From positions 1 to 63,401 of IMG/VR virus record IMGVR_UViG_3300025154_000092: 63,401 nucleotides of DNA. The stretch is one strand, 5' to 3'. This DNA is from a virus. The position numbers and the translations under genes are program-made. The notes beneath the pieces are model-generated. The model saw only the letters and a list, made by a program, of their open reading frames with translations. It had not been told where the DNA came from and did not search any database. Positions 2,615 to 63,401 of the stretch are shown here, one piece after another; the first letter of the stretch is position 1; every line of letters begins with the position of its first letter.

Positions 2615-2631
2615 TTAGACAATGTTAGACA
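2615..2631. promoter_or_regulatory. Right pair of putative integrase arm-type sites
   Basis: TTAGACA at 2615-2621 and 2625-2631, in the same orientation as the left pair. The last copy overlaps the integrase stop codon (2625-2627 on the minus strand). TTGACGC also repeats at about 2519 and 2571 between core and arm, a possible site for an excision factor. Confidence 0.6.
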
Positions 2632-3737
2632 GCGGCCGGAGAATTTCTCCGGCGTTTTTGTTTGCGCGGGTGGAGATCGGGCAGTTTGGTAGCCTGGGTT
2701 TTACGGATATCCCGGGCGAGGTGGGTGTAGACCTTGATGATCATGCTGACGTCGACGTGGCCGACTGTTTCGGCGAGCTCCATGATGTCCGTGCCGGCGG
2801 CCAGGGCATAGGTGATGTAGTAGTGGCGGATATCCTGGAGGCGGATCCGGCGGGCGATGCCGGCGGCCGTCTTTGCCTCGGTCCAGGCGCGTTTGACGGA
2901 TTTGACCGGGCGGCCGTTGAAGTGGCAGATGTAGGGGCAATTGGGGAAGTCCTTCGTTTGTGCCTTCTGCCGGGCCCTGAGACGGCGCAGGAAGGCTTTA
3001 TCGATCGGAACGGTACGGAAGCTGCCTGCCGTTTTGGATCCGCGGACCCTGAGCCTGCCTGTTTTAAAATCGAGATCGCTCCAGAGGAGTGCGAAGAGCT
3101 CGCTTTTGCCTGTGCGGACCCCTGTGTAGTAGGCAACCTCCATGATCCAGGCGAGGTGCGCGGGCGCCTGGGCGAGAATGCGGCGGAATTCATCGATGGA
3201 GAAGAGCTCGAGCTTGAATTTCTGGTGCTTGGTGCGCAGGTTCTTGCGTTCGCTCCAGGGGTTTTGGTGGATGGCGATGTCGGGCCGGCTTGCTGCCCAA
3301 TCCCATATTTTGCGGAGATAGTGCATGTAGGTGTTGATGGTGCGGTTTGTGAGGGGCGCCTTGTAGATATGGGTCTGCCGGCCCTTCATGGAGTCTTCGA
3401 CCAGGGCGCAGTCGAGCATGGCGATGGCGCTGATGGGCTTCTTGAACAGGTGAGTGGTGTAGGTGTTGACGGCATAGAGGATGCCGTAGCGGGTGCTTTT
3501 GCTGAGCTCGTTCTTGCGGTCGATGATGTAGAGCTGCACGAGCTCCTGCCAGGTTAAGGAGGAAGACGGCCGCTGGATGGGCCGTGATTTTCGTTTCTGC
3601 AGCTTGATTTCAAGGTCGCGGGTTTCGGCGGCATGCGTCGACTCGGGATCCCTGCCGAACGATTCCCAGACTTGCTTGCCCTTATCGTCGTAGTAGACGC
3701 AGAAGACCCTGCCGTCGGGCTTGGTGTGGACGGACAC
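2625..3737 (-). CDS. int: Tyrosine-type phage integrase
   Basis: A 370-residue recombinase. The N-terminal region (1-65) resembles an arm-binding domain, residues about 75-180 form the SAM-like core-binding domain, and the catalytic domain follows. Visible catalytic elements are YYTGVRTGKSE (Arg I), a strand with SKTAGSFRTVPI (Lys), LQDIRHYY (Arg II, with Gln where His is common), ETVGHVD and the nucleophile in VYTHLA. The basic tail ends in RKQKRRRN. It starts 6 bp after the repressor stop, so the two probably form one leftward operon. The adjacent tRNA-Ala half and TTAGACA sites fit its role in integration. Confidence 0.95.
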   Translation of the reverse strand: MSVHTKPDGRVFCVYYDDKGKQVWESFGRDPESTHAAETRDLEIKLQKRKSRPIQRPSSSLTWQELVQLYIIDRKNELSKSTRYGILYAVNTYTTHLFKKPISAIAMLDCALVEDSMKGRQTHIYKAPLTNRTINTYMHYLRKIWDWAASRPDIAIHQNPWSERKNLRTKHQKFKLELFSIDEFRRILAQAPAHLAWIMEVAYYTGVRTGKSELFALLWSDLDFKTGRLRVRGSKTAGSFRTVPIDKAFLRRLRARQKAQTKDFPNCPYICHFNGRPVKSVKRAWTEAKTAAGIARRIRLQDIRHYYITYALAAGTDIMELAETVGHVDVSMIIKVYTHLARDIRKTQATKLPDLHPRKQKRRRNSPAAV

Positions 3738-3743
3738 GGCTCG

Positions 3744-4205
3744 CTACTCCCCGTTTGCGCGGTTCTTTGGCCGGAGAGCCACAATGAGACCGTCGAGAAC
3801 GCCTTTGACGTAGATGAGCTTTTCGGGATCGATGGATTCGAGCGCCAGGAGCCGGGCGTTGATCTCTCTGGCCAGGTCTTTGTTTTGGAATCGCTGGATG
3901 ATGTCAGTGTGTGCGATCCGATCGGCCAGGGAAAGCACGTTGTTCGACTCTGCTGCAGGCGGCGGGTCTTGCGATTCGGGGCTGCAGAGCCATTCTTGAC
4001 TCACGTTAAACACAACACATATTCGATCGAGGGTGTCCGGATCCGGCCGGTTCATGTCTTTGCGGTAGATGTTCCACTTGCCGATCCGGGCGCTGAAGTC
4101 CCGCTTTTTCAGGCCTGCGCGGAATCTGAGTGTGTCGAGCTTGGCAAAGAAGATCGCCCATTCTTCTTTTTTCCACACCGGCTTCTGGCAAAAAGATACT
4201 TTCAT
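3744..4205 (-). CDS. Short CI-like HTH repressor without protease domain
   Basis: A 153-residue protein from the ATG at 4205. An N-terminal helix-turn-helix-like region (FFAKLDTLRFRAGLKKRDFS... through NVSQEWLCSPES) resembles phage XRE/CI DNA-binding domains. The C-terminal half is helical and lacks the S24 Ala-Gly site and Ser/Lys dyad, so it is not expected to self-cleave upon SOS. The hydrophobic extension encoded upstream (to 4403) overlaps the rightward promoter and is unlikely to be translated. It is transcribed divergently from the 4282 gene, as CI and Cro are, and likely maintains lysogeny. Confidence 0.75.
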   Translation of the reverse strand: MKVSFCQKPVWKKEEWAIFFAKLDTLRFRAGLKKRDFSARIGKWNIYRKDMNRPDPDTLDRICVVFNVSQEWLCSPESQDPPPAAESNNVLSLADRIAHTDIIQRFQNKDLAREINARLLALESIDPEKLIYVKGVLDGLIVALRPKNRANGE

Positions 4206-4217
4206 GGCATTTTCCGC

Positions 4218-4247
4218 TTGACACATGTTTAACGCATGCTGTATATA
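4218..4247 (+). promoter_or_regulatory. Rightward early promoter (PR-like)
   Basis: Consensus -35 TTGACA (4218-4223) and -10 TATATA (4242-4247) with an 18-bp spacer, 35 bp before the Cro-like gene and just upstream of the divergent repressor gene. The spacer contains ACATGT and GCATGC palindromes that could be operator parts. Confidence 0.75.
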
Positions 4248-4281
4248 CGCTGTGTAATAATCAAAACTTGGAGCAGATTGT

Positions 4282-4578
4282 ATGTGTAACACAAATAGCA
4301 CAAAGACAAAAGGCGAAATCAACACGGAAACCCTGCGGTTTCTGAAGCAGCGGTATCCGTGGAAGACGGTGCGCCAGGTTATGCCGATGCTGGCCGGCTT
4401 CACAATCCGGGCGATGGCAAAGGAGCTCGGAAAGTCGCAGCCTCAAATTTCCCAGCATATTCATATGCTCAAATACCGGAGCAACGCCGAGCTGCGGTCG
4501 AGCATTGCGCGGCTGATTGAGGTGCCGAGGGAAGAGTTGTTCGAAAAGGATGACGGAGACCATGGGCCGCATGAATAG
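4282..4578 (+). CDS. Cro-position DNA-binding protein
   Basis: A 98-residue basic protein. Residues about 37-65 (FTIRAMAKELGKSQPQISQH) read as a helix-turn-helix with the recognition helix in KSQPQISQHIHML. GGAG lies 8 nt before the ATG. As first gene of the rightward early operon and divergent from the repressor, it probably acts as Cro. The family itself is not recognised. Confidence 0.7.
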   Translation: MCNTNSTKTKGEINTETLRFLKQRYPWKTVRQVMPMLAGFTIRAMAKELGKSQPQISQHIHMLKYRSNAELRSSIARLIEVPREELFEKDDGDHGPHE

Positions 4579-5796: not shown

Positions 5797-6188
5797 TGGA
5801 GCGACGCGCTTTCCTGAAACTGACAGGCATGGCGGCTATTACGGCAGCACTACCCCGCTGGATGATAGCAGATGCCGCCAAGTCGGTTGATGATGCCTTC
5901 CGTGAAATCAAGTTCAACCCAGGATGCGAGTATAGCCGTGCAGTAGCCTTTTACGGAAATTTTGATCAGGCCTATGTAATTTCGTGCCTAGCAAAAAACC
6001 TTCAACAATATGTTCCCGGGCGATACCTGTTGAAGGTGCAGTTCAGAAGGTTGATGCCCGCAGACTTCGGAAGATATCACAAGATAGCCTGGGTCTACTC
6101 TCCTGGGAATCCTAAAGGTTACCTGGGTGTGCACGGCAAATGGGCTTATCAGGCTTCGGACGGGTATTTCCTTTGGGTCAAGGCGTGA
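5793..6188 (+). CDS. Exported protein with twin-arginine (Tat) signal
   Basis: A 131-residue protein starting MMERRAFLKLTGMAAITAALP: an RR-x-F-L-K motif with a hydrophobic core, the classic Tat signal. The mature part (about 105 residues) has aromatic-rich strands (RAVAFYGNFDQAYVISC, YHKIAWVYSPGNPKGYLGV) and no recognised domain. A Tat signal in the early region of a phage is unusual. It may be a lysogenic-conversion protein acting in the periplasm after folding in the cytoplasm. ATGATG start overlaps the previous stop. Confidence 0.7.
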   Translation: MMERRAFLKLTGMAAITAALPRWMIADAAKSVDDAFREIKFNPGCEYSRAVAFYGNFDQAYVISCLAKNLQQYVPGRYLLKVQFRRLMPADFGRYHKIAWVYSPGNPKGYLGVHGKWAYQASDGYFLWVKA

Positions 6189-16173: not shown

Positions 16174-18050
16174 GCAAAATCGACGAGACCGCAAAGCGTG
16201 CTCCTAAGAAGGAGACGTCACAGGCGCCTGCAGGAAAAGCCCGAGGTGTAGGCAAGGGCAACCTCGGGATGATGGACCTGGGCGCGTACCTGCGGGACCA
16301 CGGGCAGCCATTCCACGAAAAAAAGCTGCGAGACAAAGAGAAAGCCCACCTCACATACTTCGTACTCGAGAACGGGTGACTCTTCGACGAGAATCACCGG
16401 GGCGGTGAAGCGGCAATAGTGCAGTCACCTGAAAAGCCGTTCCTCTTCTACTTCTGCTATCACACCAGTTGCAAGAAGCACACATTCAAGGAAGCGCGGG
16501 CGAAGATCTCCGGCCAGGAGTCGCTGGCCAAGTATTACCCGGGGTATGACCCCAGCAAGCGGAGCAAGAAGCCAGGCACGGAGCTCGGCGCCGTGCTGGC
16601 AAAGTCAAGCATACCTTACCAGATTGAGTTTGAGTGCCTTTCACCCCGCATCCCCCCTCCCCACGAAGTAGACCCGTACACCTTCTTCGAAGAAGGTGCC
16701 AGGGGTACGCTGTCGTTTGTGCCGAAGCGGCTGGCGGATTACATGGCCGTGCTCCTGGGCCCCTTGTACGAGACCCTGGGGACCTGGTGGAGGTATGAAA
16801 ACGGGGTTTACCGGCGGATGGACGTTGGGGAGCTGCAGCACGTGGCGACAGTGGCATTGAGGGACCATGCTCGGCCGAACCAGGTGAACGCGGCCGTGGA
16901 GATTCTGGGGAACCTGGTTCGGCGCAGGCCCTCGGATTGGCCCAAGGAGAAACTCATAAACTGCCTGACGGGTATGTTGAACCCGGAGACGGGAAAGCTT
17001 GAGCCACACAGTCCTGCGTACCTGAGCCGGGTGCAGATAAAGTGCAAATATGACTGGAAGTATTTAGACGCGGCACAGCCGTTTATGGAGTTCCTGGAGG
17101 GGGCCCAGCCTGGAAAGGATAATGAGGCGTGCCGGACCATCCTGCACCGGTTTGGCGGGTATGTGCTGCTGCCTGACAACCGGTATGAGAAGGTGCTGCT
17201 CCTGAAGGGTGAGGGCGGGAATGGCAAAGGGACCTTTATCAACATCCTCAGCATGGTGATTGGAGAGGAGCACGTAAGCGCGTTGTCGCTGCATGACCTG
17301 GGAGAGCGGTTTAACACATACCGGCTGGAAACCTCGATCTTGAATGTTTCGACAGAGGTGAACCCTAAGAAGAGCGTTGAGACCGAGACGCTGAAGCAAG
17401 TGGTTTCCGGTGATCTGATCAAGGGCGAAGAGAAGTTCGGCAAGCAGTTCGAATTCAGGCCTAGGACGAAATGTATCTTCTCTCTGAACAAGAAGCCGAT
17501 CCTTCAGGACGTGGGGTATGCCCTGGAGCGCCGGCTGATTGTTGTGCCGTTTGACACGACATTCGAGGGCAAAACGAAGGTGGAAAGCATCTGGGACAGG
17601 TGCGTGGAAGGTGATGGGCGCCATGGCGTGTTTATGTGGATGGTGCTGGGCCTGGAGGAGCTGCTCAAGAACGGATTTGAGCTGACAGGCAGGGTGAAGA
17701 GCACAACGACGGCATTCCTGCGATCGCTAAACCCGGTGATGATTTTTGTCCAGGACGTATGTCGCCTACGACCTGGGGACAATAAGGTGTTTGTGGGCAC
17801 GGTAGAACTCTACAAGAGGTACGTGCAATGGTGCGGCCACACAAAGCACAAAGAGATGGCCAGGACGAACTTCTGGGACATCATTGAGAGCATTCCGGGA
17901 GTACGGCGGGGGTTGCACCATAAGACAAGGCAGGCGAATTTCTTTGGAATCGAAATTAAGCCTGAAGACCTGGGTGAAGAGGCAGAAGGTTATGATGATC
18001 TTGAGGAGGTCGACCCCTCGACCCCTCAACCCCGTACCCCCTCTTCTTAG
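16170..18050 (+). CDS. Zinc-finger SF3 (D5/P4-type) helicase, interrupted by an in-frame UGA at 16377
   Basis: One open frame of 626 residues if the UGA is read. Before it, 69 residues end in LTYFVLENG. After it come LFDENHRGGEAAIVQ, then FYFCYHTSC, i.e. a (Cys/Sec)-x5-His...Cys-x4-Cys zinc finger whose first ligand is the UGA. Then the D5-N region, Walker A LLKGEGGNGKGTF, a Walker B-type strand (TSILNVSTEV), the SF3 B' and C motifs (FRPRTKCIFSLNKKP) and the arginine-finger region YALERRLIVVPFD. GTG 16419 has no convincing ribosome site and lies inside the conserved finger, so separate translation is unlikely. Alternatives are a nonsense mutation or base error. Confidence 0.88.
16377..16408 (+). 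promoter_or_regulatory. In-frame UGA with SECIS-like hairpin
   Basis: UGA 16377-16379, 14 nt gap, then stem UCACCG (16394-16399) / CGGUGA (16403-16408) with loop GGG. The loop begins 21 nt after the UGA. Bacterial SECIS elements lie just downstream of the UGA with a short stem and a G among the first loop bases. The same geometry recurs at 63265. Confidence 0.6.
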
Positions 18051-18064
18051 TTCGCCTTACTGTT

Positions 18065-18355
18065 ACCTTCACGAAGGTTTGGGCGAAGGGTAAACGAAGG
18101 TTTTGCGAAGGTTTTGCGAGTTGGCAAGTGTCTGAAAACATTAATGAACGAAGGTTGCGAAGGTTTTCAGTGAGGTTAGTCCTTACTATTATGCACATAC
18201 TATCTCCTATTTATTCTCTTTTTGTCACTCCGTGCGAAAGGAGTAGCTCAGAAACCTTCGCAACCTTCGTAGTGGAGGAAGATCAAACACTTAGAAGACA
18301 AAAAACCTTCGTAAAAACCTTCGGGAAACCTTCGGAATGGGGGGTAAAAACCTTC
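18065..18355. other. ori: Putative replication origin: 6 + 6 inverted iterons around an AT-rich core
   Basis: Rightward CGAAGGTTT-type iterons start at 18072, 18084 (variant CGAAGGG), 18095, 18106, 18149 and 18158. Leftward AAACCTTCG-type iterons start at 18252, 18262, 18301, 18312, 18325 and 18345. The 18168-18251 centre is AT-rich with TTATTCTCTTTTTG. It directly follows the helicase gene. Inverted iteron arrays around an unwinding element are typical of initiator-dependent origins. The 18051-18820 stretch holds no convincing gene. Confidence 0.8.
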
Positions 18356-18644
18356 GTAACCGGTCCTGAAGTGACGTTAAGTAGGTGCATGAAATGATGG
18401 CTGGCGAGTGCATTATTCGGCCAGCGACGGGATCGGCCGCGGTATAAGGCGAAGGATAGTGAATGGAAGCGAAGGTAGCCAGGTGGGCTACCTTCAGAAA
18501 GGGGGGTGGGGGGCACGGGTGAACGCTTGAATCATGGTGCCGAAAACCCACGAAGAATGGGAAATGAATGGAAAGGTGGTGGTGGAAGTGAACCTGGATG
18601 GATTCGAGGTGTGAACCGGTGGATGTTTGTCAATTTTTAACGAA

Positions 18645-18684
18645 CACGACTTGCTAACTTTAGTGGATAAGTTAGCAAGTCGTG
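18645..18684. repeat. loxP-like 16-8-16 bp palindrome
   Basis: CACGACTTGCTAACTT (18645-18660) and its exact inverted copy AAGTTAGCAAGTCGTG (18669-18684) flank an asymmetric 8-bp spacer TAGTGGAT. This is the architecture of a tyrosine-recombinase crossover site (arms + 8-bp spacer). No U-run follows, so it is not a terminator. A small tyrosine recombinase starts 137 bp downstream. Confidence 0.75.
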
Positions 18685-18751
18685 AAAACGCGGAGAAGCA
18701 GGAACAACAAGGCTCTTGGGTGTTTTGGGGGATTCGGTTAAAAAATAGGCC

Positions 18752-18801
18752 TTGACAGATTGCCAACTAATAATGATGATACGGCAGAAAGTTGGCAAAT
18801 C
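18752..18801 (+). promoter_or_regulatory. Promoter with second pair of TTGC-AACT half-sites
   Basis: A consensus -35 TTGACA lies at 18752-18757. Half-sites TTGCCAACT (18760-18768) and AGTTGGCAA (18790-18798) resemble those of the palindrome upstream (TTGCTAACT, AGTTAGCAA). Centre spacing is 30 bp here and 19 bp there, one helical turn apart. The recombinase, or another protein, may autoregulate here. Confidence 0.55.
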
Positions 18802-18820
18802 TCGAAAGGGGGAAAACGGG

Positions 18821-19417
18821 ATGAAAAAGAGCAGAAATCCGAATCACCCGAGGGCCGGATCCAGGATCAAGGTGGAACCGATCAAAACGCTGAAGGACAT
18901 CAAGTCGATCAAGAAGCTGCTGGCAGATAACCCGCGGGACCTGGCGCTGTTCGTGGTCGGGATCAATACGAACCTGAGGGCCGGCGATCTGCTCGGGATC
19001 CGTGCCGGCATGGTCCGGGGCCTGCGGCCGATGGATGAGATCGAGCTCAGGGAGGGGAAAACCGGGAAGCTGCGCCGGATCAGCCTGAACGGAAGCGCTA
19101 TAGAGGCCGTCCAGGGGCTTTTGGCTTCTCAGGCATACCAGGACAAGGACTTCCTTTTCAGGAGCCAGCGGGGCGAGGTCCTGACAGTGCCGTCGCTCCA
19201 CCGACTGGTAAAGGGCTGGTGTTCGACGATCAACCTGCGGGGCAACTTCGGCAGCCACACGCTTCGGAAGACATGGGGATATCACCAGCGGGTGACCTTC
19301 GGCATGGGATTGCCTGAGCTGATGGTCTGTTTCAACCATTCGAGTCAGAGGCAAACCCTGGATTACCTCTGCATCCAACCCGAAGAGGTGAGGTCGGTCT
19401 ATGCGAACGAGCTGTGA
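18821..19417 (+). CDS. Minimal tyrosine recombinase (catalytic domain only)
   Basis: A 198-residue stand-alone catalytic domain. INTNLRAGDLLGI carries Arg I, EGKTGKLRRI the beta-hairpin Lys, GSHTLRKTWGYH the His-x-x-Arg box, FNHSSQRQTLDYLCI the final His and the nucleophilic Tyr. No arm-binding domain and almost no core-binding domain. The ATG at 18821 has AAAGGGGG upstream. It is the second recombinase of this phage. Next to the origin and a loxP-like site it is more likely to resolve multimers or circularise than to integrate. Confidence 0.88.
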   Translation: MKKSRNPNHPRAGSRIKVEPIKTLKDIKSIKKLLADNPRDLALFVVGINTNLRAGDLLGIRAGMVRGLRPMDEIELREGKTGKLRRISLNGSAIEAVQGLLASQAYQDKDFLFRSQRGEVLTVPSLHRLVKGWCSTINLRGNFGSHTLRKTWGYHQRVTFGMGLPELMVCFNHSSQRQTLDYLCIQPEEVRSVYANEL

Positions 19418-23470: not shown

Positions 23471-23590
23471 GCGGTTACGCCCCCGACAGCGGCTATTTTT
23501 GTCGGAAGGTCATTTTTGCGTGAGACTCCCCGTGTCCGTGAGGTCGGGGGCGCTTCCTTGTAAGCGTTCAGAGGTCTCACGCTTTTTTTG
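23471..23590 (+). ncRNA. C4-type antisense RNA/attenuator leader
   Basis: Two complementary pairs are interleaved: A1 CGCCCCCGAC (23478-23487) with A2 GTCGGGGGCG (23543-23552), and B1 GCGTGAGAC (23518-23526) with B2 GTCTCACGC (23574-23582), which is followed by a T7 run. Order A1-B1-A2-B2 makes the pairings mutually exclusive. A1 can also fold locally (CCGAC/GTCGG around AGCGGCTATTTTT). This matches the C4 antisense RNA of P1/P7-type antirepressor operons, where processed C4 pairs with the ant leader to stop expression. Confidence 0.8.
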
Positions 23591-23630
23591 TTGTGTTACA
23601 AAATCTGAAACCTACAAGGAGGACAACAAG

Positions 23631-24779
23631 ATGGAAATGGAGTTGGTTCGTGTAACAAAGCGTGCATTAGGAGGAAATACCATCCAAACTGTCAACGCGC
23701 GAGAGTTGTACGAGTTCTTGGAATCAAAACAGGAATTTGCTAATTGGATCAAAGGCAGGGTCGAGGAGTACGGTTATACCGAAGGAGAGGAGTTTTTGAC
23801 AATTTTATCAAAAACCCCGTCTGACGCGGGTGGCAGGCCTTCCAGGGAGTATTTCATCTCCCTCGACATGGCCAAGGAGTTGGCCATGGTGGAGCGGACG
23901 GAGAAAGGGAGGCAGGCCAGGAAGTATTTCATTGAGTGTGAGCGGCGGTTGCGGGAGATGACGAGCGAGCTGCGGGCGCTGCCTGCGCCTGCCGGGACGG
24001 CGATGCAGGAGGGGATTCAGCGCGGGATCGGGTTGATGATGGCGGCAGGCAGGTATTCGCTGAAGGTGGCCGACCTGGAGAAATACTTTTACTTCCGCAA
24101 GCTTGGTCTGGACACGGCACAGGCGGAGGCTGCCTTCGGGATGGCTCCAGGCGCGGCGGCTGCCTTCGAGCAGGAGCTTGGCCATGCGGGCATCCGGATC
24201 CGTCCGGACCGAAAGGGACTGGAGGCCGTCGCGGGCCGGTTGGCGGAGATGGTGGCGGGCGAAGAGGTGTCTTTGAAGCAGCTGCCGGTTTCCGACGCTC
24301 TTTCGGATTTCGGTGGCGAGATCTGCCTCCTGGACAGAGCGGCGGCGATCAGGACCCTGGTGCTTTACGCCAAGTACAGGGACTGGGCCATTGAAAACCA
24401 CCGCTATCTGCTGGGGTTCAATGATTTCAGGCGCGAACTCACCTCGCGTTTCCCGGTAACAAAGCAAAGCGCTTACGGGAAAGAGCGGCGGGCGCACTTT
24501 CTTGGAATTACACTCAAAAACCCCCAACCGGCAGGCACGATCGAGGAGTTCGTGGAGAAGTGCTGCGTTCTCGACCCAAGGGCCAGCGTTCTAACCAGGG
24601 ATCTTTACATTGCGTTCAGGAACTGGTGTTATTCCAAGGGCGGCGGGCATATCGGCCGCCAGCTCTTCTTCAAGAGCATGGAAAGCAAATACGCCGGCAG
24701 GATAGCGGTAAAGAAGGCGGCCCGTAAAATGAGCTTTTTCGGAATCACCCTGAAGGGCGAGGGAGGTGAGCGGCTATGA
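23631..24779 (+). CDS. AntA/AntB-type antirepressor with tandem wHTH domains
   Basis: A 382-residue protein from ATG 23631 (AAGGAGG). Residues about 14-100 are an AntA domain (VNARELYEFLESKQEFANWI, EYFISLDMAKELAMVER, KGRQARKYFIECER). The C-terminal half has two copies of a ~75-residue unit: 'LVLYAKYRDWAIENHRYLL...AHFLGITLK' and 'RDLYIAFRNWCYSKGGGHI...MSFFGITLK'. These resemble the winged helix at the end of D5/P4 primases. It likely inactivates the repressor. Ends with ATGA overlap. Confidence 0.85.
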   Translation: MEMELVRVTKRALGGNTIQTVNARELYEFLESKQEFANWIKGRVEEYGYTEGEEFLTILSKTPSDAGGRPSREYFISLDMAKELAMVERTEKGRQARKYFIECERRLREMTSELRALPAPAGTAMQEGIQRGIGLMMAAGRYSLKVADLEKYFYFRKLGLDTAQAEAAFGMAPGAAAAFEQELGHAGIRIRPDRKGLEAVAGRLAEMVAGEEVSLKQLPVSDALSDFGGEICLLDRAAAIRTLVLYAKYRDWAIENHRYLLGFNDFRRELTSRFPVTKQSAYGKERRAHFLGITLKNPQPAGTIEEFVEKCCVLDPRASVLTRDLYIAFRNWCYSKGGGHIGRQLFFKSMESKYAGRIAVKKAARKMSFFGITLKGEGGERL

Positions 24780-25457: not shown

Positions 25458-26105
25458 ATGGGGAAGAAAGAGCCGTACATCGACAAACACAACCTGGGAG
25501 AGCGGGTGCTCGGGTTGTCGTTTGGGGGGATGACGGACACCAGGATTGCCGAGCAGCTCACTTCCGAAGGACACAAGATCTCACAACCCACCGTTACCCG
25601 ATGGCTCCAGGCAAAGCGTGAAGAGATGGGACCCCAGGTGAGGGGCATCATGCAGGATCACCTGCAGAGGAAGCTCCCCAGGGACTTGGAAGTCCTCGAG
25701 GAGATGGAGGTGATCACCTTCGATTGGGCCAAGGAAGAGAAACCGGCCCTGGTCGAACGGCTGATGGATCCGGCCTGGTGCGCTGCTGCGTATCTGCGAT
25801 GGAAGGCGTCGATCGTCGAGGCCAAAGAGGAAGAGCAGCAAGGGGTGATGCGGCTGATTCTCAAGGAGGCCATGGGCAGGGTCACAGAATTTTTCAATGT
25901 GCGCCGCGAAAAGCTCAATTTCATGAAGAGCACCCGGGACGATATAGCGCTGAAACTCCAGTATTCCGGCGTGATCGAGGGGGCGGAGAAGGGGAATATT
26001 TATATCGTCACGAGCAAGAAAGAGCAGGGACCGCAGGGACAAAAGGGCGGGGAGAGTAAGCCGAGGCTGCAGATGGTGCTGAAGGGGCCGAAAGATGCCA
26101 AGTGA
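25458..26105 (+). CDS. terS: Terminase small subunit-like protein
   Basis: A 215-residue protein. Residues about 12-50 read as a helix-turn-helix (GERVLGLSFGGMTDTRIAEQ and KISQPTVTRWLQ). A helical middle and a basic tail (KKEQGPQGQKGG) follow. It sits directly before the large subunit, overlapping by 11 nt, so packaging-site recognition is inferred from position and HTH. The tail sequence itself is Gln/Gly rich. Confidence 0.75.
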   Translation: MGKKEPYIDKHNLGERVLGLSFGGMTDTRIAEQLTSEGHKISQPTVTRWLQAKREEMGPQVRGIMQDHLQRKLPRDLEVLEEMEVITFDWAKEEKPALVERLMDPAWCAAAYLRWKASIVEAKEEEQQGVMRLILKEAMGRVTEFFNVRREKLNFMKSTRDDIALKLQYSGVIEGAEKGNIYIVTSKKEQGPQGQKGGESKPRLQMVLKGPKDAK

Positions 26106-27570
26106 TCTTAGATTCGACCTGAGCCCCACGCAAACGGATTTTGTTTTGTCCGAGGCCCATATCGTGCAGTTGATCGGGCCGATGGGTGAGGGAAAGACCC
26201 ATGCGGGGATTGCCGGTATGATCTACCATGCCCAACGAAACGGCAAGCCTATAGAGACTGCCCTCATTCGGGATACCTTTCAGAATATCAAGACTTCCAC
26301 CAGCAAGGATATTGCGAAGATCTGCGGCGAGTGGGCGCGTTTTACAGATGGCGGCAGGCGGTTGACGCTGATGACGACCCCAAGGGTGCACTGCGATCTC
26401 TTCGGGATAGATTCGGAGGCCGATATCAGCAAGCTGCAGGGGCCGCAGTATTCGCTGATCTGGCTCGAAGAGCCGGCGCCGATTTACGAGAAAAGCAATG
26501 CCGGGCTTCCTATCGGGGTGTTTCGCATGGCTTTGGCCAGGGCTGCGCGGCAATCGGGCGGCATGATTCCGCGGGTGCAGCTTTCGCACAACCCGTCGGA
26601 CGAAGATCACTGGACGGCGGAGCTCGCCGACGAACCCCATGAATATGTGTCGATTTACGATGAGAACAGCGGGCAATGGGTGACTGTGTACAAGGATATC
26701 TTCCGTATCCCCAGGGGCGAAAACAAGTTTCTCTCGCCCATAGCCCGTGCCATGAACGAGGCGGCGTTCAAAGGAGATCCCGGCAAGTACGCACGGTATG
26801 TGCTCGGCGAAGAGGCGATGGTCGTGCAGGGCAGGAGGGTGACCCCTGCCTATGATCAGCGGGTTCATTTCTCGGAAAGGATTCTGCCGGTGCTCAAGGG
26901 CGAAGCGATCATGATGTGGGATTCGTGGCTGGATGCGACCTGCACCATTGCGCAATACAACCCGCTCGGCCAGCTCGTGTTTCACGACGTGCTCCACGAA
27001 GAGGGACTAGGACCGGAGGAGATCATCGAGGAGAAGGTGCTGCCGCTTCTCGAAACCCCCAAATACAAGGGCAAGGTGAAGGTCGAAGGGCCGTGGCGGA
27101 TCATCGGGGACCAGAGCATGAGAAACCCGGACCAGTCGAGCAACAAGCGGAGCGCTGCAAGTCTCATTGAAGGGGTGTTTAAGGCCCGGTTCGAGCCGGG
27201 GCCTGCCCACTGGCATCGTATGCGGAACATCCCCAACCAGTGCTGCCGGGCGAGGACGCCGCACGGTTTGCCGTTGATCCTGCTCTCCAGGTCGGCGACA
27301 AAGCTTCACCGGGCCCTGAAGGGCGGCTGGCACTACAAGGTGGACGTAAGCGGCCACATTCTGGGGGATAAGCCGGAGAAAAACATTCACAGTCACCCGG
27401 GGGACACTTTTGCCAACGGGCTGGCGGTGCTGCATCCGCAGAAGCCGGACGAGCAACGGCCTCCGGTGGATCAGCGGGCGGCGCAGAAGCTGGCCAGGAG
27501 CTACGGGGGCGGGAATTTCAGTAGAAGGTTTGCGGCGGCCGGCGGGATTTCGGGGCCGTTTAATCCGTGA
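26095..27570 (+). CDS. terL: Terminase large subunit
   Basis: A 491-residue packaging motor. Walker A IGPMGEGKTHAG at about residues 27-38, Walker B SLIWLEEPAP (catalytic Glu) at about 120-129, 'QLSHNPSDEDHWTAE' resembling the coupling motif, then the nuclease domain with acidic residues (MMWDSWLDATC, IIGDQSMRNPDQSS, HPGDTFANGLAV). The length is typical of the family. Followed by small genes and the portal. Confidence 0.93.
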   Translation: MPSDLRFDLSPTQTDFVLSEAHIVQLIGPMGEGKTHAGIAGMIYHAQRNGKPIETALIRDTFQNIKTSTSKDIAKICGEWARFTDGGRRLTLMTTPRVHCDLFGIDSEADISKLQGPQYSLIWLEEPAPIYEKSNAGLPIGVFRMALARAARQSGGMIPRVQLSHNPSDEDHWTAELADEPHEYVSIYDENSGQWVTVYKDIFRIPRGENKFLSPIARAMNEAAFKGDPGKYARYVLGEEAMVVQGRRVTPAYDQRVHFSERILPVLKGEAIMMWDSWLDATCTIAQYNPLGQLVFHDVLHEEGLGPEEIIEEKVLPLLETPKYKGKVKVEGPWRIIGDQSMRNPDQSSNKRSAASLIEGVFKARFEPGPAHWHRMRNIPNQCCRARTPHGLPLILLSRSATKLHRALKGGWHYKVDVSGHILGDKPEKNIHSHPGDTFANGLAVLHPQKPDEQRPPVDQRAAQKLARSYGGGNFSRRFAAAGGISGPFNP

Positions 27571-28050: not shown

Positions 28051-30021
28051 ATGCCAGTGCCTTTGCCGAATCCGAATAGCGATGATCCTGCCGAGCTGTT
28101 GATCCAGCGGCGGCGGGAGATCGAGACGTATGAGCACAAGCCTGCGGTGGACCCCAGGGAGCTTGCGGAGCGGGAAGAGGCTGCAAAGGCCTATGCCGGT
28201 GAAAACGAGGACCATTTTGTATCCTATGTGCTGGATTGCTACAACACGTCGATTCGGGCACACCAGGATATCCGGCGGATCCAGGGGCACTGCTGGAACG
28301 CATATGAGGAAAACGAGCCGGTGAACTTCCTCGACAAGGAGGAGTGGCAGGCAAAGACGATTGTTCCAAAACCTTTTCAGACCGTGCAGTTCGGCGCTGC
28401 CGCGGTGAAGAAGGCCTTTACCCCGCAGTTTTTGAGCATCAAGAATGCCAGGAACAAGGCGAGCGAAGCGTTCTGGCAGAAGGTCATGGATTTTTATCTG
28501 AACGAGCAGCATGCCGATTTCAGGACCGTGTTTGCCGACGCCTGCCTGATGGGGCTTGCCATAGGGACATCGTCGGAGATGATTCCCATGTTCAGCTCGG
28601 CGGCCGGTCTGCAGATTCCCCTTGTGGAGCCGTGGAAGATCGTCCGGGATCCGGATGCGCTGCCGCGCGATCCGCATAGCGGCATGTACTGGATTCATGA
28701 GGAATGGCTCGACTATTACGTGCTGAAAGAGGCGGAGAAAAAGCAAAAGTATACGCAGGTGGACGCGGCGGTCGACACTACGGGCGGGTCCAATGACAAC
28801 CCCCTGACCACTGCCGAGGCCATAGCGGCACGAAAGAACATGATCATAGAGCGGTCGCGTTTCCGCAAAATGGTGCTTACCAAGGAGTTTCACGGCACTA
28901 TCCTGAGCCCGAACGGCGAGCTGCTTCTTCCTTCTGCCAAGCTCACGCTTGGCGCAAACCGGGTAATCGGGCTTCCCAAGGCTGTGGACACCGATTACCG
29001 CTTTCCCGGGATCTCGTTTTCTCCTCTGCCACACCTGCTGAGATACGACGGCCGCGGGCTGCTGGAAGGGGTGCTGAGCGTGTGGGAAGCGATGAACAAT
29101 ATCCTGTGTCTCCACCAGGATTACCTGCAATGGCTGGTCAACCCTCCCAGGGAGATCAACGTGGACGGGTTGCAGGACCCAAAGGATGCCAAGATCTTTC
29201 CCGGGAAGGATGTGCTCACGAAGGATACCGCCAACGGGCAGCAGGTGGTCCGGATCGAGCAGCGGCGGAGCAGGACCACGGACATTCTGGCGAACCTGCA
29301 GCATTTCGACCAGTTGTTCCAGCGGGGCACGTTCGTTTCGGACAGCGTGCAGGGGCTGCCGGGATGGCGGCAGGATGAACCGTACAGGCTGGCGGCCATG
29401 CACCTTGACCAGGCCCTGGGGGTTTTCGGGTTGATGGGGAGCAACGTGGAGGTGGGGGCGATCAAGGCCATTACGCAGTCGGCCCGGGTGATCAGGAAAT
29501 TTGCCACGTACAGGGATTACCAGCAGATATTCACCGACGAGGAGCTTAAAAAATTCGGTGTGGCGCTGGATCCCAGTAAACCGAACGGGGTGGGCGGTGT
29601 GCCGGAATTCGACGGCACGTTCCACGTGTCGGGGATCCAGGCCCTGATGAAGGACAATGAGTGTTTGAAAGTGATCAATGAGATCATTATTCCGCTCTCG
29701 GACAGGCCGCAGTATGCGCCGTATATCGACCCATACCGTGTGTTGAAATCGATCGAGATTCGAGCGAACCTCGAGGATGAGAAGATCATCCCAACCGATG
29801 AACAGGCGAAGATCATCCAGGTGCAGCAGATGCTTGCCGCGGCCAAGCAGCAGGAGGCCATGGAGCGGATGCAGGAGCTGCAGGAGGCGATGGGCGTAAC
29901 CGAGCTGATCAAAAAGATCGAGGAGATCGAGGCGGAGACGAAGCGGCCGGAGGAGATGGCGAAGCGGATTTTGCAAATTCAGGGCGGAAAGACGATGCAG
30001 GGGGGCGGCAATGCTCGGTAA
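28051..30021 (+). CDS. Portal protein (podovirus-like)
   Basis: A 656-residue protein. Long helical N-terminus, 'WQAKTIVPKPFQTVQFGAAA' and 'FADACLMGLAIGTSSEMIPM' follow the order of large podovirus portals, with a 'GLLEGVLSVWEAMNNILCLH' wing/clip region and a helical, charged C-terminus (QVQQMLAAAKQQEAMERMQ) suited to the barrel. It forms the dodecameric DNA gate. Position after terminase supports this. No ATPase or protease motif. Overlaps the next gene by 11 nt. Confidence 0.88.
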   Translation: MPVPLPNPNSDDPAELLIQRRREIETYEHKPAVDPRELAEREEAAKAYAGENEDHFVSYVLDCYNTSIRAHQDIRRIQGHCWNAYEENEPVNFLDKEEWQAKTIVPKPFQTVQFGAAAVKKAFTPQFLSIKNARNKASEAFWQKVMDFYLNEQHADFRTVFADACLMGLAIGTSSEMIPMFSSAAGLQIPLVEPWKIVRDPDALPRDPHSGMYWIHEEWLDYYVLKEAEKKQKYTQVDAAVDTTGGSNDNPLTTAEAIAARKNMIIERSRFRKMVLTKEFHGTILSPNGELLLPSAKLTLGANRVIGLPKAVDTDYRFPGISFSPLPHLLRYDGRGLLEGVLSVWEAMNNILCLHQDYLQWLVNPPREINVDGLQDPKDAKIFPGKDVLTKDTANGQQVVRIEQRRSRTTDILANLQHFDQLFQRGTFVSDSVQGLPGWRQDEPYRLAAMHLDQALGVFGLMGSNVEVGAIKAITQSARVIRKFATYRDYQQIFTDEELKKFGVALDPSKPNGVGGVPEFDGTFHVSGIQALMKDNECLKVINEIIIPLSDRPQYAPYIDPYRVLKSIEIRANLEDEKIIPTDEQAKIIQVQQMLAAAKQQEAMERMQELQEAMGVTELIKKIEEIEAETKRPEEMAKRILQIQGGKTMQGGGNAR

Positions 30022-31626: not shown

Positions 31627-32595
31627 ATGACAGGAGCGACTTTTAGTTGGACGTACGATGCACCGGCGGGGGTTTTCAAGAACCATGGCCTGTCGGGAGA
31701 GTTGCTGAAACTTGCGGCGCTCGATTTCAAACTCGTGCCGTTTACGCGGCGCGTAACGGAGTTTCATAAGGGCATGGGCGAGAGCATTACCCTGCTCTAC
31801 TACAAGGCCCTTTCGCAGCCCTCGAGCGCATTGCTCGAAGAGAAAACCCGAATCCCCATTGATCAGCTCACGATGGGCCAGCAGACCATCACCATCGCCG
31901 AATGGGGGCGCGGCGTGGAGTACACGGATCTGATGAAGCAATTGAGCAAATACGACCCCACGAGCCCCATTCAGGAACGTTTGAAGGACCAGATGAACGA
32001 GGCCATGGACAACGCGGTGGGATCCCATTTCACGGGTACCGACGTGAAACTCGCGTTTACCCCCACTTCGCTTACCGGAGGCACCTGGGCAACCACGGGG
32101 ACGTCGGTTACCACAGCCTTGGCGAACCTGACCAAGGATCACCTGGCCGTGATCAGGGACTACATGGCCAAGGACATCCACGTGCCCTTCTTCGACGGGG
32201 ACCACTTTATCGGGCTTTTCTCCACCAAGGCCCTTCGAGGCCTTCGAAACGACCGGGTGATAGAGGCGTGGAACATGTATCTCCGCAAGGGGGATCACAT
32301 CTACAAGGGCGAGATCGGCAAGGTGGAGTCGATCCGGGCGGTGGAGATCACCAATGACACGGCCCTTTCGAACTCGGTAGGCAGCGGCGGGATCATGGGC
32401 GAGGCGGTTGTGTTCGGGAAGGATGCCCTTGCCCGGATCGAGCTGGAGTTCCCGCATCTTCGCGCACAACCCAACTACACGGCGGATTTCGGCCGGCGGC
32501 ATGCGGTTGCGTGGTACGGCACGGTGAACTTCGGCGTGTTTTTCCCCACATCGACGGACCGGGAAGCGCGGATTGTGAAGGTGGTGAGCGCGTAA
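31627..32595 (+). CDS. Major capsid protein
   Basis: A 322-residue coat protein. 'SITLLYYKALSQPSSALLEE', 'DGDHFIGLFSTKALRGLRND', GEIGKVESIRAVE and 'GRRHAVAWYGTVNFGVFF' follow the order of the N4 gp56-like, HK97-fold coat family. Length is near that family's. GGAGGGTTAGACG precedes the ATG. It forms the icosahedral shell. Confidence 0.9.
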   Translation: MTGATFSWTYDAPAGVFKNHGLSGELLKLAALDFKLVPFTRRVTEFHKGMGESITLLYYKALSQPSSALLEEKTRIPIDQLTMGQQTITIAEWGRGVEYTDLMKQLSKYDPTSPIQERLKDQMNEAMDNAVGSHFTGTDVKLAFTPTSLTGGTWATTGTSVTTALANLTKDHLAVIRDYMAKDIHVPFFDGDHFIGLFSTKALRGLRNDRVIEAWNMYLRKGDHIYKGEIGKVESIRAVEITNDTALSNSVGSGGIMGEAVVFGKDALARIELEFPHLRAQPNYTADFGRRHAVAWYGTVNFGVFFPTSTDREARIVKVVSA

Positions 32596-46001: not shown

Positions 46002-46081
46002 AGGGTTTCCGCCGCGGAGTGAGCAGGCGCATATATTCCTGAGCGGAGTGTGCGCCTATTTTGTTACACGGGGATCTACAC

Positions 46082-49000
46082 ATGTTCAAAAGCCTAGAAG
46101 AATTCGACCGCTGGGTAGAGGAAGGCAGGCAGGAGGAAATCAGTAAGCGGGCGGCTATGTCGAAACCGCGCGGGGTGCTCAAAGAGGCTGCATCGGCCCT
46201 GGGGGCCGGTGTGGTGAGCACGGGGGAATCGATTGCCGGCGCCGGTGAGATGATCGGGATCCCCGGGGCGAGAGGCGCCAGGGAATACCTCCAGGAGGTG
46301 GGCGAGGCGGAATCTCTGGCCAGGCCTGAGGATCTACAGGAGGGCACCATTGTCGAGCATCCGGAACGGTTGGCGGATTGGCGATGGTGGGTGAGGTCCC
46401 TGGGGGAGAACATCCCGAACATGGCGGCCATGATGTTGCCGGGCGGGCTCGCGTGGAAAGGGGCCAAGGCGGCCGGCTGGGGGTACAAAGCGATCAAGAC
46501 CGCGGCGCTGAGCGGGGCGTTCTCAGGGGCTGCAACGGTGGAGGCGGGCGCCGCTTACACCCAGGCCAAGAAAGAGATGGATGAGTTCGGGTATGCCGAT
46601 GACGTGATAGAGCGCGTGGCCACTGCCGAAGGGCTGATTGTGGGGACTGCAAACGGCATTCTGGAGATGCTGCCGTTCGACAACCTCTTTCTGCGGTCTA
46701 CCGGCGCTTCCGGCATTATTCGCAGGATTGTGCGGCAGGCGGTTTTCGAGGGGTCGACCGAGATGGCCCAAGAGACGGTGAGCCTGGCTGTGGAGCAGTG
46801 GGGGCACCAGCCGGATGTGGAGCTGAAGACCGCGATAGGCCGGGTGCTGGAATCCGGGATTATAGGCGGGGTGCTCGGCGGCGGGGCAGGTGCGGTATTT
46901 CAGAGGACAGAGGACAGAGGACAGAGGACAGAAAAAGAAAAAGATCAACCCATATCCACGACGGGGCAGGAGACGACCCGGGTTGGTTTGGCGGAGATCG
47001 CCGCGGCCGAAGAGGAGCGCAAGGAGAAGGCTCGCCGGGTGGAGAAGGCCAAGGCCGATGCGCCGGCGGCGCTGGCGGAGATCCTGAAGGAAGAAGAGGA
47101 GAGTAGAGCGGAAGTGGTGGCTGCGAAGGCCATTGCGGAGATCGAAGGGACCAAAGGGACGGCAGGGACCGAAGAAGCGGAGGGTGTGGATGAAGGTGCA
47201 CAAGAAGGACGGGTGGCACGTGTACTCGGAGAAGAAGAACCCGTTGACGGGGAAGCGGCGGCATCTGGGGGGCCCGTACCCGGCGGAGAGCCAGGCGAAC
47301 GAGAGGTTGCGGCAGGTGGAGGCGGCGAAGGGGAAAAAGTAGAAACGGAGAAACGGGGAAGCGGAGAAACGGAGATCAAGGAGAAGATCGATGCGGCGGC
47401 CAATGAAGCGGCCACATCCCCGAAGAACGATTTGCCTGAACCCACCGAAGAGCAGAAGGAGAAAGAAAACTACAAGATGGGGCATCCTGACCCTAAGCTG
47501 CTGCATGGGTTGGATATCTCCATAGAGAACCCCAAAGGCTCCATTCGCAAAGGCAAGAGCAAGGCCGGCGTGGAATGGCAAACGAAGATGCAGGCGCACT
47601 ATGGTCACATAAACGGGACCGAAGGCGCGGACAGCAGCAAAAAGCTGCGGCAAGGAGTTGACGTCTTCATAGGAGAAACCCCTGAAAGTGAAATGGTGTT
47701 CATTGTCAACCAGGTGAGCCCTGATACCGGCAAGTTCGACGAACACAAGGCCATGCTCAATTACCCCAGCGAAGAAGACGCCCGTAAGGGCTACCTGGGC
47801 AACTATGAAAAGGGATGGAAGGGACTCGGATCCATTGTGCCCATGAAAATGGATGAGTTCAAGACCTGGCTCAAGGAAGGGGACACGACAAAGGAGGCAA
47901 AAGGGACACGAGGGACCAAAGGGACGGAAGGGGAGAAAGGACGGGCGGCGGAAGCGAAGACAGAGCCCACAGCGAAAGAAAAGGCTGTGTCGCAGGGGGT
48001 AGCAAGCATCACGGGGGGAAAGCCCACGGCCGCGGCGCCTGCAGAGGCAAAGGGCAAGAAGGAAGAGCCAACCCCGGCAGAGACGAAGAAAGCAGGAGAG
48101 TACGGGGTTCCTATTCCGCAGGCTTGGAGTAGGCCTACGACCGGAGCAGAAAAGAAATTTGCCAACTACAAGGGTTTTGCATCGTCTGATGAAGGCGGAT
48201 ACCTGTCCGTCGAGGCTTGGGGGGAGACGCAATCCGACGCGGAAAATAATGCACGTAAAGAATTTGAACGCCAATGGTTCAACCGGGATCAATGGAGAAA
48301 AAAGGAGAGCCCGGAGCTCAAAGCCTCAGAAGCAAGCGCAGATGATCTCCTCGCCGAGTGGGATAAGCAGGCGGCGGAGATGGAGGAACCGAAAGAACTA
48401 CGCATAAGTCAGAAGGAACTCGCTGTGCTGCGATCACGGCTGAAGATAGCACAAGAACGCGGCGCGATGGTCGCAGGCATTGAAGTGGATATCCGGCGAT
48501 ATGAGGAGAGCCCAAAGACTTCCGATCTTGATTACAGGGCAACCCTCAATGAACTGAATCAGCGGATCGCTGAGCAAGAGAAGCACGAAAAGGAAGTCAA
48601 GGCGAAGGAACAACTACCCTCCTGGGCGGCGAAGAAGGTTGGAGAGAACCGGGCCGACATTGCCCTTTATGAGGACAAGGACGGCAACCGGGTATTTCTG
48701 GACAAAGGCTTTGTGACGAGCGCTCCTCGCCCTTTAGTCTCCGGCGGCCAGGTCCTGAAGCCTTATAATCCGGAGCAGCTTTACAAGGCTGGGCGGAAAG
48801 AGTTTCTCACCAAGGAAGAGCTGGAGAAGTTCAAGGCCGAGGGAAAACCTGTTTCTGCAGGAGTGGCCAGCATAACGGGGAAGAAGCAGGAAGCGGAAGC
48901 TAAAGCGGCGGAAAAGAAGGAGTTCAAGGAAGGTGATTTTGTCGTACCGAACTCTGAAAGCGGGCTTGGGATCACTTATCGCGGCAGGATCACAAAGACT

Positions 49001-63267: not shown

Positions 63268-63298
63268 GCCGGGATAAATTCCGGTGGGGTCTCCACCG
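63265..63298 (+). promoter_or_regulatory. In-frame UGA with GGUCU-loop SECIS-like hairpin
   Basis: UGA 63265-63267, 14 nt, then CGGUGG (63282-63287) / CCACCG (63293-63298) around the pentaloop GGUCU (63288-63292). The loop starts 21 nt after the UGA, as at 16400. GGUCU is the apical loop of the E. coli fdhF SECIS (from memory). The hairpin is also present at 11-27 in the left repeat. Confidence 0.65.
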
Positions 63299-63401
63299 AT
63301 ATAGCGGGAGTTGCGGTAGGAGATTCGCTGACGGCCAACGGGACGTATGTAACCAACGTGTCCGATAGGTGCTGCGGCCCGACGATCACGAATTTCGGGA
63401 T
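63276..63401. repeat. Right copy of the 126-bp end repeat
   Basis: Identical to 5-130. See the left copy. It lies inside the fibre/SGNH reading frame. Confidence 0.9.

What the first reader, a model, noticed from the sequence alone, without database searches (positions are those of the whole stretch)
18645..19417. Minimal tyrosine recombinase next to a loxP-like 16-8-16 site
A 198-residue catalytic-only recombinase lies 137 bp after two 16-bp inverted arms with an asymmetric 8-bp spacer (TAGTGGAT). Related half-sites (TTGCCAACT/AGTTGGCAA) overlap its promoter with centre spacing one helical turn longer. This looks like a compact Cre/lox-like pair that controls its own gene. The phage already has an integrase, so multimer resolution or circularisation is the likely job.
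Basis: partly seen in the sequence, partly recalled or inferred. Interest (0 to 1): 0.75.

Follow-up and report, generated by a model that had tools for sequence, protein, structure and literature searches.

The report
Catalytic-only recombinase with lox-like site
This circular phage genome carries a very small DNA-cutting-and-joining enzyme next to its own target site, a compact unit found here also on many unrelated plasmids and on some transposons, which most likely keeps these circles from getting stuck together as multimers and switches its own gene off.

Summary
A perfect 16-8-16 palindrome (18645-18684) lies 136 bp upstream of a 198-aa tyrosine recombinase that consists of a catalytic domain only (18821-19417). 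A second pair of the same half-sites, spaced 11 bp wider, flanks the -10 of its promoter. It is not chance and not private to this phage. In the >=40%-identity clade the palindrome recurs about 150-200 bp upstream with a fixed 8-bp variable spacer (43 of 77 non-redundant loci), while neighbouring genes are unrelated. Complete plasmids carry the same unit, one of them a 9.6-kb plasmid with RepB and ParA. Three distant relatives sit divergently beside a Tn3-family transposase with a palindrome in between, the arrangement of a cointegrate resolvase. In Enterococcus plasmids, closely similar modules are joined to five unrelated left flanks exactly at the palindrome's edge, and one site looks like a hybrid of two arm types: natural signatures of recombination there. 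Best explanation: an autoregulated Cre/lox- or TnpI/IRS-like resolution module, here next to an iteron origin in a phage that also has an ordinary integrase. A MobK-like relaxase is the main rival. No wet-lab proof exists; I found no published description. New variant of a known kind.

The parts
18645..18684 (.). core (lox-like) recombination site: 16-bp inverted arms, asymmetric 8-bp spacer TAGTGGAT
   Evidence: family-wide conservation of the 8-bp spacing
18760..18798 (.). second, wider pair of the same half-sites (TTGCCAACT...AGTTGGCAA; spacer 19 in core register = 8+11), predicted operator flanking the -10
18752..18780 (+). predicted sigma-70-type promoter of the recombinase (TTGACA-17-GATGAT)
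   Evidence: consensus match only
18821..19417 (+). catalytic-domain-only tyrosine recombinase, 198 aa, R53 K80 H146 R149 H173 Y182
18072..18356 (.). probable iteron replication origin: 5 copies of CGAAGGTT then 6 copies of AACCTTCG in opposite orientation around an AT-rich stretch; no other copies in the window
   Evidence: function inferred
16419..18050 (+). primase/helicase (D5_N, DUF5906, VapE-like) adjacent to the iterons
2625..3737 (-). the phage's ordinary, full-length tyrosine integrase (not part of the module)

Best explanation
It is a self-contained, autoregulated site-specific recombination module. Two protomers of the 198-aa catalytic-only tyrosine recombinase bind the two arms of 18645-18684; two such sites on a dimeric or multimeric circle synapse, and Tyr182 cleaves at the edges of the 8-bp spacer and exchanges strands, turning multimers into monomers. 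The asymmetric spacer should give direct-repeat resolution rather than inversion. The same protein binds the wider half-site pair at 18760-18798, where the protomers lie one turn further apart and flank the -10, and represses its own promoter. In this circular temperate phage the module sits about 290 bp from an iteron origin and is separate from the integrase, so its most likely job is to keep the replicating circle monomeric, with circularisation of incoming DNA as a possible second use. SHOWN by sequence: site, operator-like pair, full catalytic set, absence of a core-binding domain, conservation as a unit, homology junctions at the site edge in relatives. INFERRED: binding, strand exchange, autorepression, multimer resolution in this phage.
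For: Conservation: among 77 non-redundant loci with >=40% identity, half-site pairs with an 8-bp spacer upstream in 43, against 0-15 at other spacers from 4 to 12 and 2 in downstream controls; 26 have >=10/11 arm matches with spacer 8, against 1 with spacer 7, 0 with spacer 9 and 1 downstream. Pairing profile around the centre: pairs 1-4 at 0.35-0.58, pairs 5-15 at 0.88-1.00, then background. The second pair peaks at spacer 18-19 (16 of 26 loci score >=17/22) and tends to match that locus's own core arms better than other loci's (mean rank 0.13). Neighbour genes are unrelated (no family shared by more than 3 of 47 loci), so the palindrome belongs to the recombinase. Full catalytic set; AF2 model pLDDT 90, nearest solved folds XerA, XerH, Tn1549 Int, Cre. 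Context: the unit on eight complete plasmids, one being 9.6 kb with RepB, ParA and a single site; relatives divergent from a Tn3-family transposase with a palindrome between. Junctions: nine Enterococcus plasmids, five unrelated left flanks, all 26 pairs with different flanks start at -164 to -168 = left edge of the palindrome, at about 87-96% identity on the right; three Acaryochloris plasmids at -153 to -156 = site edge. E. gallinarum pEG001 has a left arm of the E. casseliflavus type and a right arm of the common type, as a crossover in the spacer would give. Here: iterons and circular genome ends (126-bp terminal repeat).
Against: No biochemical or genetic test exists for this protein or, in the papers I could search, for any member. 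34 of 77 relatives lack a family-type upstream site by the PWM test (two of these have palindromes with divergent arms), and five phage relatives whose gene sits inside an operon show no clear 8-bp-spacer palindrome related to the family site anywhere on the contig, so the site is not indispensable in every lineage. The junction evidence comes from relatives, the Enterococcus ones only 33% identical. The phage has an integrase, and no ParA was found, so a resolution system is not obviously needed. One plasmid and one other locus hold a second core site with a different spacer, which simple dimer resolution does not require.
Confidence: 0.66

Rival explanations
1. Tyrosine-recombinase-like relaxase: the protein nicks the palindrome as an origin of transfer for mobilisation, like MobK of pIGRK, MpsA of SGI1 and TcpM of pCW3.
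For: MobK is also a tyrosine-recombinase-like protein without core-binding domain, with its nucleophile at Y179 and its oriT with inverted repeats just upstream of its promoter, and is suspected of autoregulation (PMC8152469). Plasmids are a main habitat of this family.
Against: Two-fold arms with a fixed 8-bp variable spacer and junctions at the site edge are what strand exchange predicts. The unit occurs in phages, beside Tn3 transposases, on plasmids typed non-mobilizable and on plasmids with a standard relaxase. pIGRK itself was not in the collections, so direct homology could not be tested.
Confidence: 0.12
2. DNA-binding regulator only: the protein has kept binding to both palindromes for gene control and no longer recombines.
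For: The wider pair flanks the -10 of its own promoter; some family members lack the core site.
Against: The catalytic set is kept: R53, H146, R149 and Y182 are invariant and K80 and H173 nearly so in 65 diverse members; a core site with arms away from the promoter is kept too; homology junctions at the site.
Confidence: 0.07
3. Integration module: the palindrome is an attP-like site for insertion into other replicons bearing a similar site, i.e. cointegrate formation or cassette exchange rather than resolution.
For: Unrelated left flanks joined at the site in Enterococcus and Acaryochloris plasmids; Spartinivicinus pC and one Verrucomicrobia locus hold a second core site about 3 kb away with a different spacer; a free-standing site without recombinase in an E. 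casseliflavus plasmid.
Against: Most replicons tested hold a single site with both arms intact; here there is an ordinary integrase; the exact site occurs in no other IMG/VR contig.
Confidence: 0.1
4. The palindrome is an RNA or transcription feature (terminator or attenuator hairpin) or an operator of an unrelated regulator.
For: A 16-bp perfect inverted repeat with an 8-nt loop would fold as RNA.
Against: No T-run and no terminator call; fixed 8-bp spacing with co-changing arms and position tied to the recombinase gene although neighbours differ.
Confidence: 0.03

Closest known systems
Cre/loxP of phage P1
   Same: tyrosine recombinase with its own palindromic site: inverted arms around an asymmetric 8-bp spacer; phage-borne; presumed multimer resolution or circularisation; Cre is among the nearest folds
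   Different: Cre has a core-binding domain and about 340 residues; here 198 residues, catalytic domain only, about 17% identity in structural alignment; the site lies in the promoter region with a second, wider pair of half-sites
TnpI/IRS of Tn4430 and Tn5401 (Tn3-family cointegrate resolution; PMC7157771)
   Same: core inverted-repeat site upstream of the recombinase gene, extra binding sites in the same intergenic region, control of the gene by its product; distant relatives here also sit beside Tn3-family transposases
   Different: accessory sites here are an inverted pair spaced +10/11 bp, not direct repeats DR1/DR2; from my own knowledge TnpI is a longer enzyme with a core-binding domain; no sequence comparison with TnpI was made
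TnpS/TnpT rst of Tn4651-group transposons (PMC7157771)
   Same: two pairs of inverted repeats, one of them the recombination core
   Different: needs a helper protein TnpT; divergent gene pair
FimB/FimE-type invertases
   Same: about 200 aa, catalytic domain only
   Different: invert a segment between two sites; Fim-type NCBIfam models do not reach E 0.001 with the window protein; one core site here
MobK (pIGRK) tyrosine-recombinase-like relaxase
   Same: no core-binding domain, inverted repeats upstream of the promoter, possible autoregulation
   Different: described as nicking oriT for conjugation; minimal oriT needs a G-rich element; homology not testable here
XerA and XerH single-recombinase systems
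   Same: best profile and fold matches
   Different: full two-domain proteins acting on chromosomal dif sites; far below the NCBIfam cut-offs (40.8 against 220 bits)

Membership tests
tyrosine recombinase superfamily (PF00589) | catalytic set R-K-H-R-H/W-Y in the DNA_BRE_C fold | tested here: met
Cre/lox-type system | inverted arms around a 6-8 bp asymmetric crossover spacer, tied to the recombinase | tested here: met
Cre/lox-type system | recombinase with N-terminal core-binding domain plus catalytic domain | tested here: not met
   198 aa; model and profile alignments cover only the catalytic domain
Cre/lox-type system | recombination between two sites without accessory factors | not testable with these tools
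   needs an assay; homology junctions at the site in relatives are indirect support
TnpI/IRS-type resolution system | core site plus extra binding sites in the promoter region of the recombinase gene | tested here: met
   second pair with spacer 18-19; its form differs (inverted, not direct, repeats)
TnpI/IRS-type resolution system | linkage to a Tn3-family transposase | tested here: not met
   no Tn3 transposase was seen beside the window gene; met in three distant relatives
tyrosine-recombinase-like relaxase (MobK, MpsA, TcpM) | lack of core-binding and arm-binding domains | tested here: met
   description of the group in PMC8152469
tyrosine-recombinase-like relaxase (MobK, MpsA, TcpM) | mobilises its replicon from an adjacent oriT | not testable with these tools
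   needs a mating assay; present on phage and on plasmids with their own relaxase
Fim-type DNA invertases | two inverted sites flanking an invertible segment | tested here: not met
   a single core site in the window
Xer/dif | match to Xer equivalog models above cut-off | tested here: not met

The most novel reading that the evidence does not exclude
A large, so far undescribed class of stand-alone 'mini-lox' modules: catalytic-only recombinases with their own lox-like site and self-regulating operator, which move as a unit between phages, plasmids and Tn3-family transposons across many bacterial phyla, serve as the resolution system of each, and let plasmids exchange flanks at the site. It would show that a tyrosine recombinase needs no core-binding domain for specific, autonomous recombination at a compact site of about 30-40 bp.
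Probability: 0.45. Interest if true: 0.75.

Novelty: new variant of a known kind. Interest (0 to 1): 0.62.

Why it matters
Annotation calls these proteins 'integrase', although their anatomy, contexts and homology junctions point to resolution. If right, hundreds of plasmid records (924 matched), many phages and some Tn3-family transposons gain an assigned multimer- or cointegrate-resolution system and a mapped hot spot for plasmid mosaicism, including in Enterococcus plasmids. Small enzymes of about 200 aa with differing compact sites would also be new candidates for genome engineering, and they test how a tyrosine recombinase gains specificity without a core-binding domain.

Tried and rejected
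Terminator or hairpin reading: no terminator call. Operator of a neighbouring gene: neighbours not shared. Exact window site elsewhere: none in IMG/VR; a sister arm pattern found only two already known relatives. Relatives of the primase in IMG/VR: none confirmed. Distant Firmicutes homologues (Sporosarcina, Listeria, Streptococcus phages, B. subtilis natto plasmid, Caldicellulosiruptor) checked upstream: no strong core site in any of these five, so the 8-bp-spacer site is a clade feature; other Firmicutes members (Peribacillus, Enterococcus, Alicyclobacillus) have palindromes of other spacing at the same place. Operon-embedded phage members: no clear site on the whole contig. pIGRK (MobK) was not available; pCW3 was left alone. 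ParA in this phage: none. Literature: ten searches found no description of this family with its site; only openly licensed PMC papers were searchable. My first gene list (longest ORF first) wrongly preferred several antisense ORFs, among them one over this gene and one over the head genes; it was corrected.

Full report
WHAT IS THERE. The window is an IMG/VR virus record of 63,401 bp. Bases 5-130 equal 63276-63401 exactly (126 bp), so the assembly closes on itself and the genome is probably complete and circular. Phage genes are present: terminase large subunit (26095-27570), head-tail adaptor (28051-30021), major head protein (31627-32595), antirepressor (23499-24779), repressor-like protein (3744-4403, -) and a full-length integrase (2625-3737, -). 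The palindrome CACGACTTGCTAACTT-TAGTGGAT-AAGTTAGCAAGTCGTG spans 18645-18684 and is the only perfect 16-bp-arm palindrome with a 3-12 bp spacer (expected 0.00015). The ORF 18821-19417 encodes 198 residues with Pfam Phage_integrase and PHROG 216 matches. The best profile and fold relatives are XerA, XerH, Tn1549 Int and Cre. The AF2 model (pLDDT 90) holds only the catalytic domain after a loosely predicted N-terminal tail of about 20 residues.

THE SITE BELONGS TO THE GENE. I collected relatives from IMG/VR, one-genome-per-species contigs and plasmids. Of 77 non-redundant members with >=40% identity, 43 have a pair of family half-sites with an 8-bp spacer upstream; other spacers from 4 to 12 give 0-15 and downstream controls 2. 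The PWM was built from 26 of these loci, so the model-free count matters more: >=10/11 arm complementarity with spacer 8 in 26, with spacer 7 in 1, with spacer 9 in 0, downstream in 1. Around the centre, base pairs 1-4 are complementary in 35-58% of sites, pairs 5-15 in 88-100%, and beyond 16 the level falls to background: the anatomy of arms around a crossover spacer. Arms differ between lineages (CTTGCTAACTT here; CTCGTTAACTT, AATCTTAACTT, TTCGTCGTCTT elsewhere) but remain palindromic. Flanking genes are unrelated (no family in more than 3 of 47 loci). The tree shows the site scattered over Desulfobacterota, Cyanobacteria, Proteobacteria, Nitrospirota, Planctomycetes, Verrucomicrobia and others, with repeated gains or losses.

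THE OPERATOR. Near -40 (relative to the gene start; range about -32 to -80) most core loci have a second, imperfect pair of the same half-sites with a spacer of 18-19, i.e. 8 plus one helical turn (16 of 26 at >=17/22). They tend to match the locus's own core arms better than other loci's (mean rank 0.13). Here the pair flanks the -10 of a TTGACA-17-GATGAT promoter. In several loci the left half-site reads AAGTT instead of AACTT, which might make it a binding-only site (inference). Binding there would occlude the promoter (inference).

RECOMBINATION. Three lines go beyond anatomy. (i) Habitat: eight complete plasmids carry the unit, including 9.6-kb pDCAR5 whose recognised genes are RepB, ParA and the recombinase, with one core site. 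(ii) Tn3 link: in two Alicyclobacillus plasmids and one Desulfosporosinus contig the gene is divergent from a Tn3-family transposase with a palindrome between, as resolvase genes are in that transposon family (PMC7157771). (iii) Junctions: nine Enterococcus plasmids share modules at about 87-97% identity whose homology, in all 26 pairs with different left flanks, starts at -164 to -168, the left edge of the palindrome; there are five unrelated left flanks (database-wide picture, where many plasmids share one common left flank, so records must not be counted as independent events). In pEG001 the left arm AATGAGACAC is of the E. casseliflavus type and the right arm of the common type, as expected after a crossover in the spacer; this is one case and a point mutation cannot be excluded. 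Three Acaryochloris plasmids with modules 86-89% identical also diverge exactly at the site's left edge. A caveat: a module boundary at the site could also arise if the unit is copied as a block by another mechanism.

HOW IT WORKS HERE. Eleven copies of AACCTTCG, five in one orientation and six in the other around an AT-rich centre, lie at 18072-18356 beside the primase/helicase gene and nowhere else: a probable iteron origin about 290 bp from the core site. The plausible cycle is: circular replication and homologous recombination yield multimers; the recombinase resolves them at 18645-18684; excess protein shuts its own promoter. Integration is left to the 2625-3737 integrase, which is barely similar to the small protein. 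Circularisation of incoming DNA is a possible second role.

RIVALS AND LIMITS. The MobK, MpsA and TcpM relaxases also lack the core-binding domain, and MobK's oriT lies just upstream of its promoter (PMC8152469). The occurrence in phages, beside Tn3 transposases and on plasmids with their own relaxase argues against this, but only a mating test can settle it. Thirty-four relatives lack a family-type upstream site by the PWM test, and operon-embedded phage members show none on the contig, so some members may have changed job. Spartinivicinus pC and a Verrucomicrobia locus have a second core site with a different spacer, reminiscent of flanked modules. The Enterococcus proteins are only 33% identical to the window protein.

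VERDICT. Observation confirmed, interpretation supported and widened. A new variant of a known kind: Cre/lox- and TnpI-like in logic, unlike them in domain make-up and site layout.

Noticed in passing
46061-60070: One ORF of 4669 codons, 22% of the genome, with an InPase domain (1.9e-48) and SNF2/ResIII helicase domains: a giant polyvalent phage protein.
   Followed up: partly
18072-18356: Eleven AACCTTCG/CGAAGGTT repeats in two opposed arrays around an AT-rich centre, none elsewhere in the window: probable origin beside the primase.
   Followed up: partly
5-130 and 63276-63401: 126-bp exact terminal repeat: the contig closes into a circle, so the genome is probably complete.
   Followed up: yes
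L026 about 5907-5930 (NZ_CP048881.1 71046-71069) and L072 about +3406 from the gene: A second lox-like core site with the same or similar arms and a different spacer about 3 kb from the first.
   Followed up: partly
L214, L215, L087: Catalytic-only recombinase divergent from a Tn3-family transposase with a palindrome between: apparently a Tn3 resolution system with a different type of tyrosine resolvase.
   Followed up: partly
L220-L222, L226-L229: The palindrome is a junction hot spot in Enterococcus plasmids: five unrelated left flanks at one edge.
   Followed up: yes
L230 1201-1289 (NZ_CP068127.1): Free-standing copy of the Enterococcus site plus about 60 bp without the recombinase gene.
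   Followed up: no
L213 (NZ_CP071726.1): Acaryochloris pMB09 has two divergent small tyrosine recombinases on either side of one core site.
   Followed up: no
60204-61856: O-antigen-ligase-like (Wzy_C) protein with TPR repeats at the end of the phage genome, a possible surface-modification gene.
   Followed up: no
core loci L023, L028, L046, L056, L063 and others: The operator's left half-site often reads AAGTT where the core site reads AACTT, a systematic C-to-G difference.
   Followed up: partly
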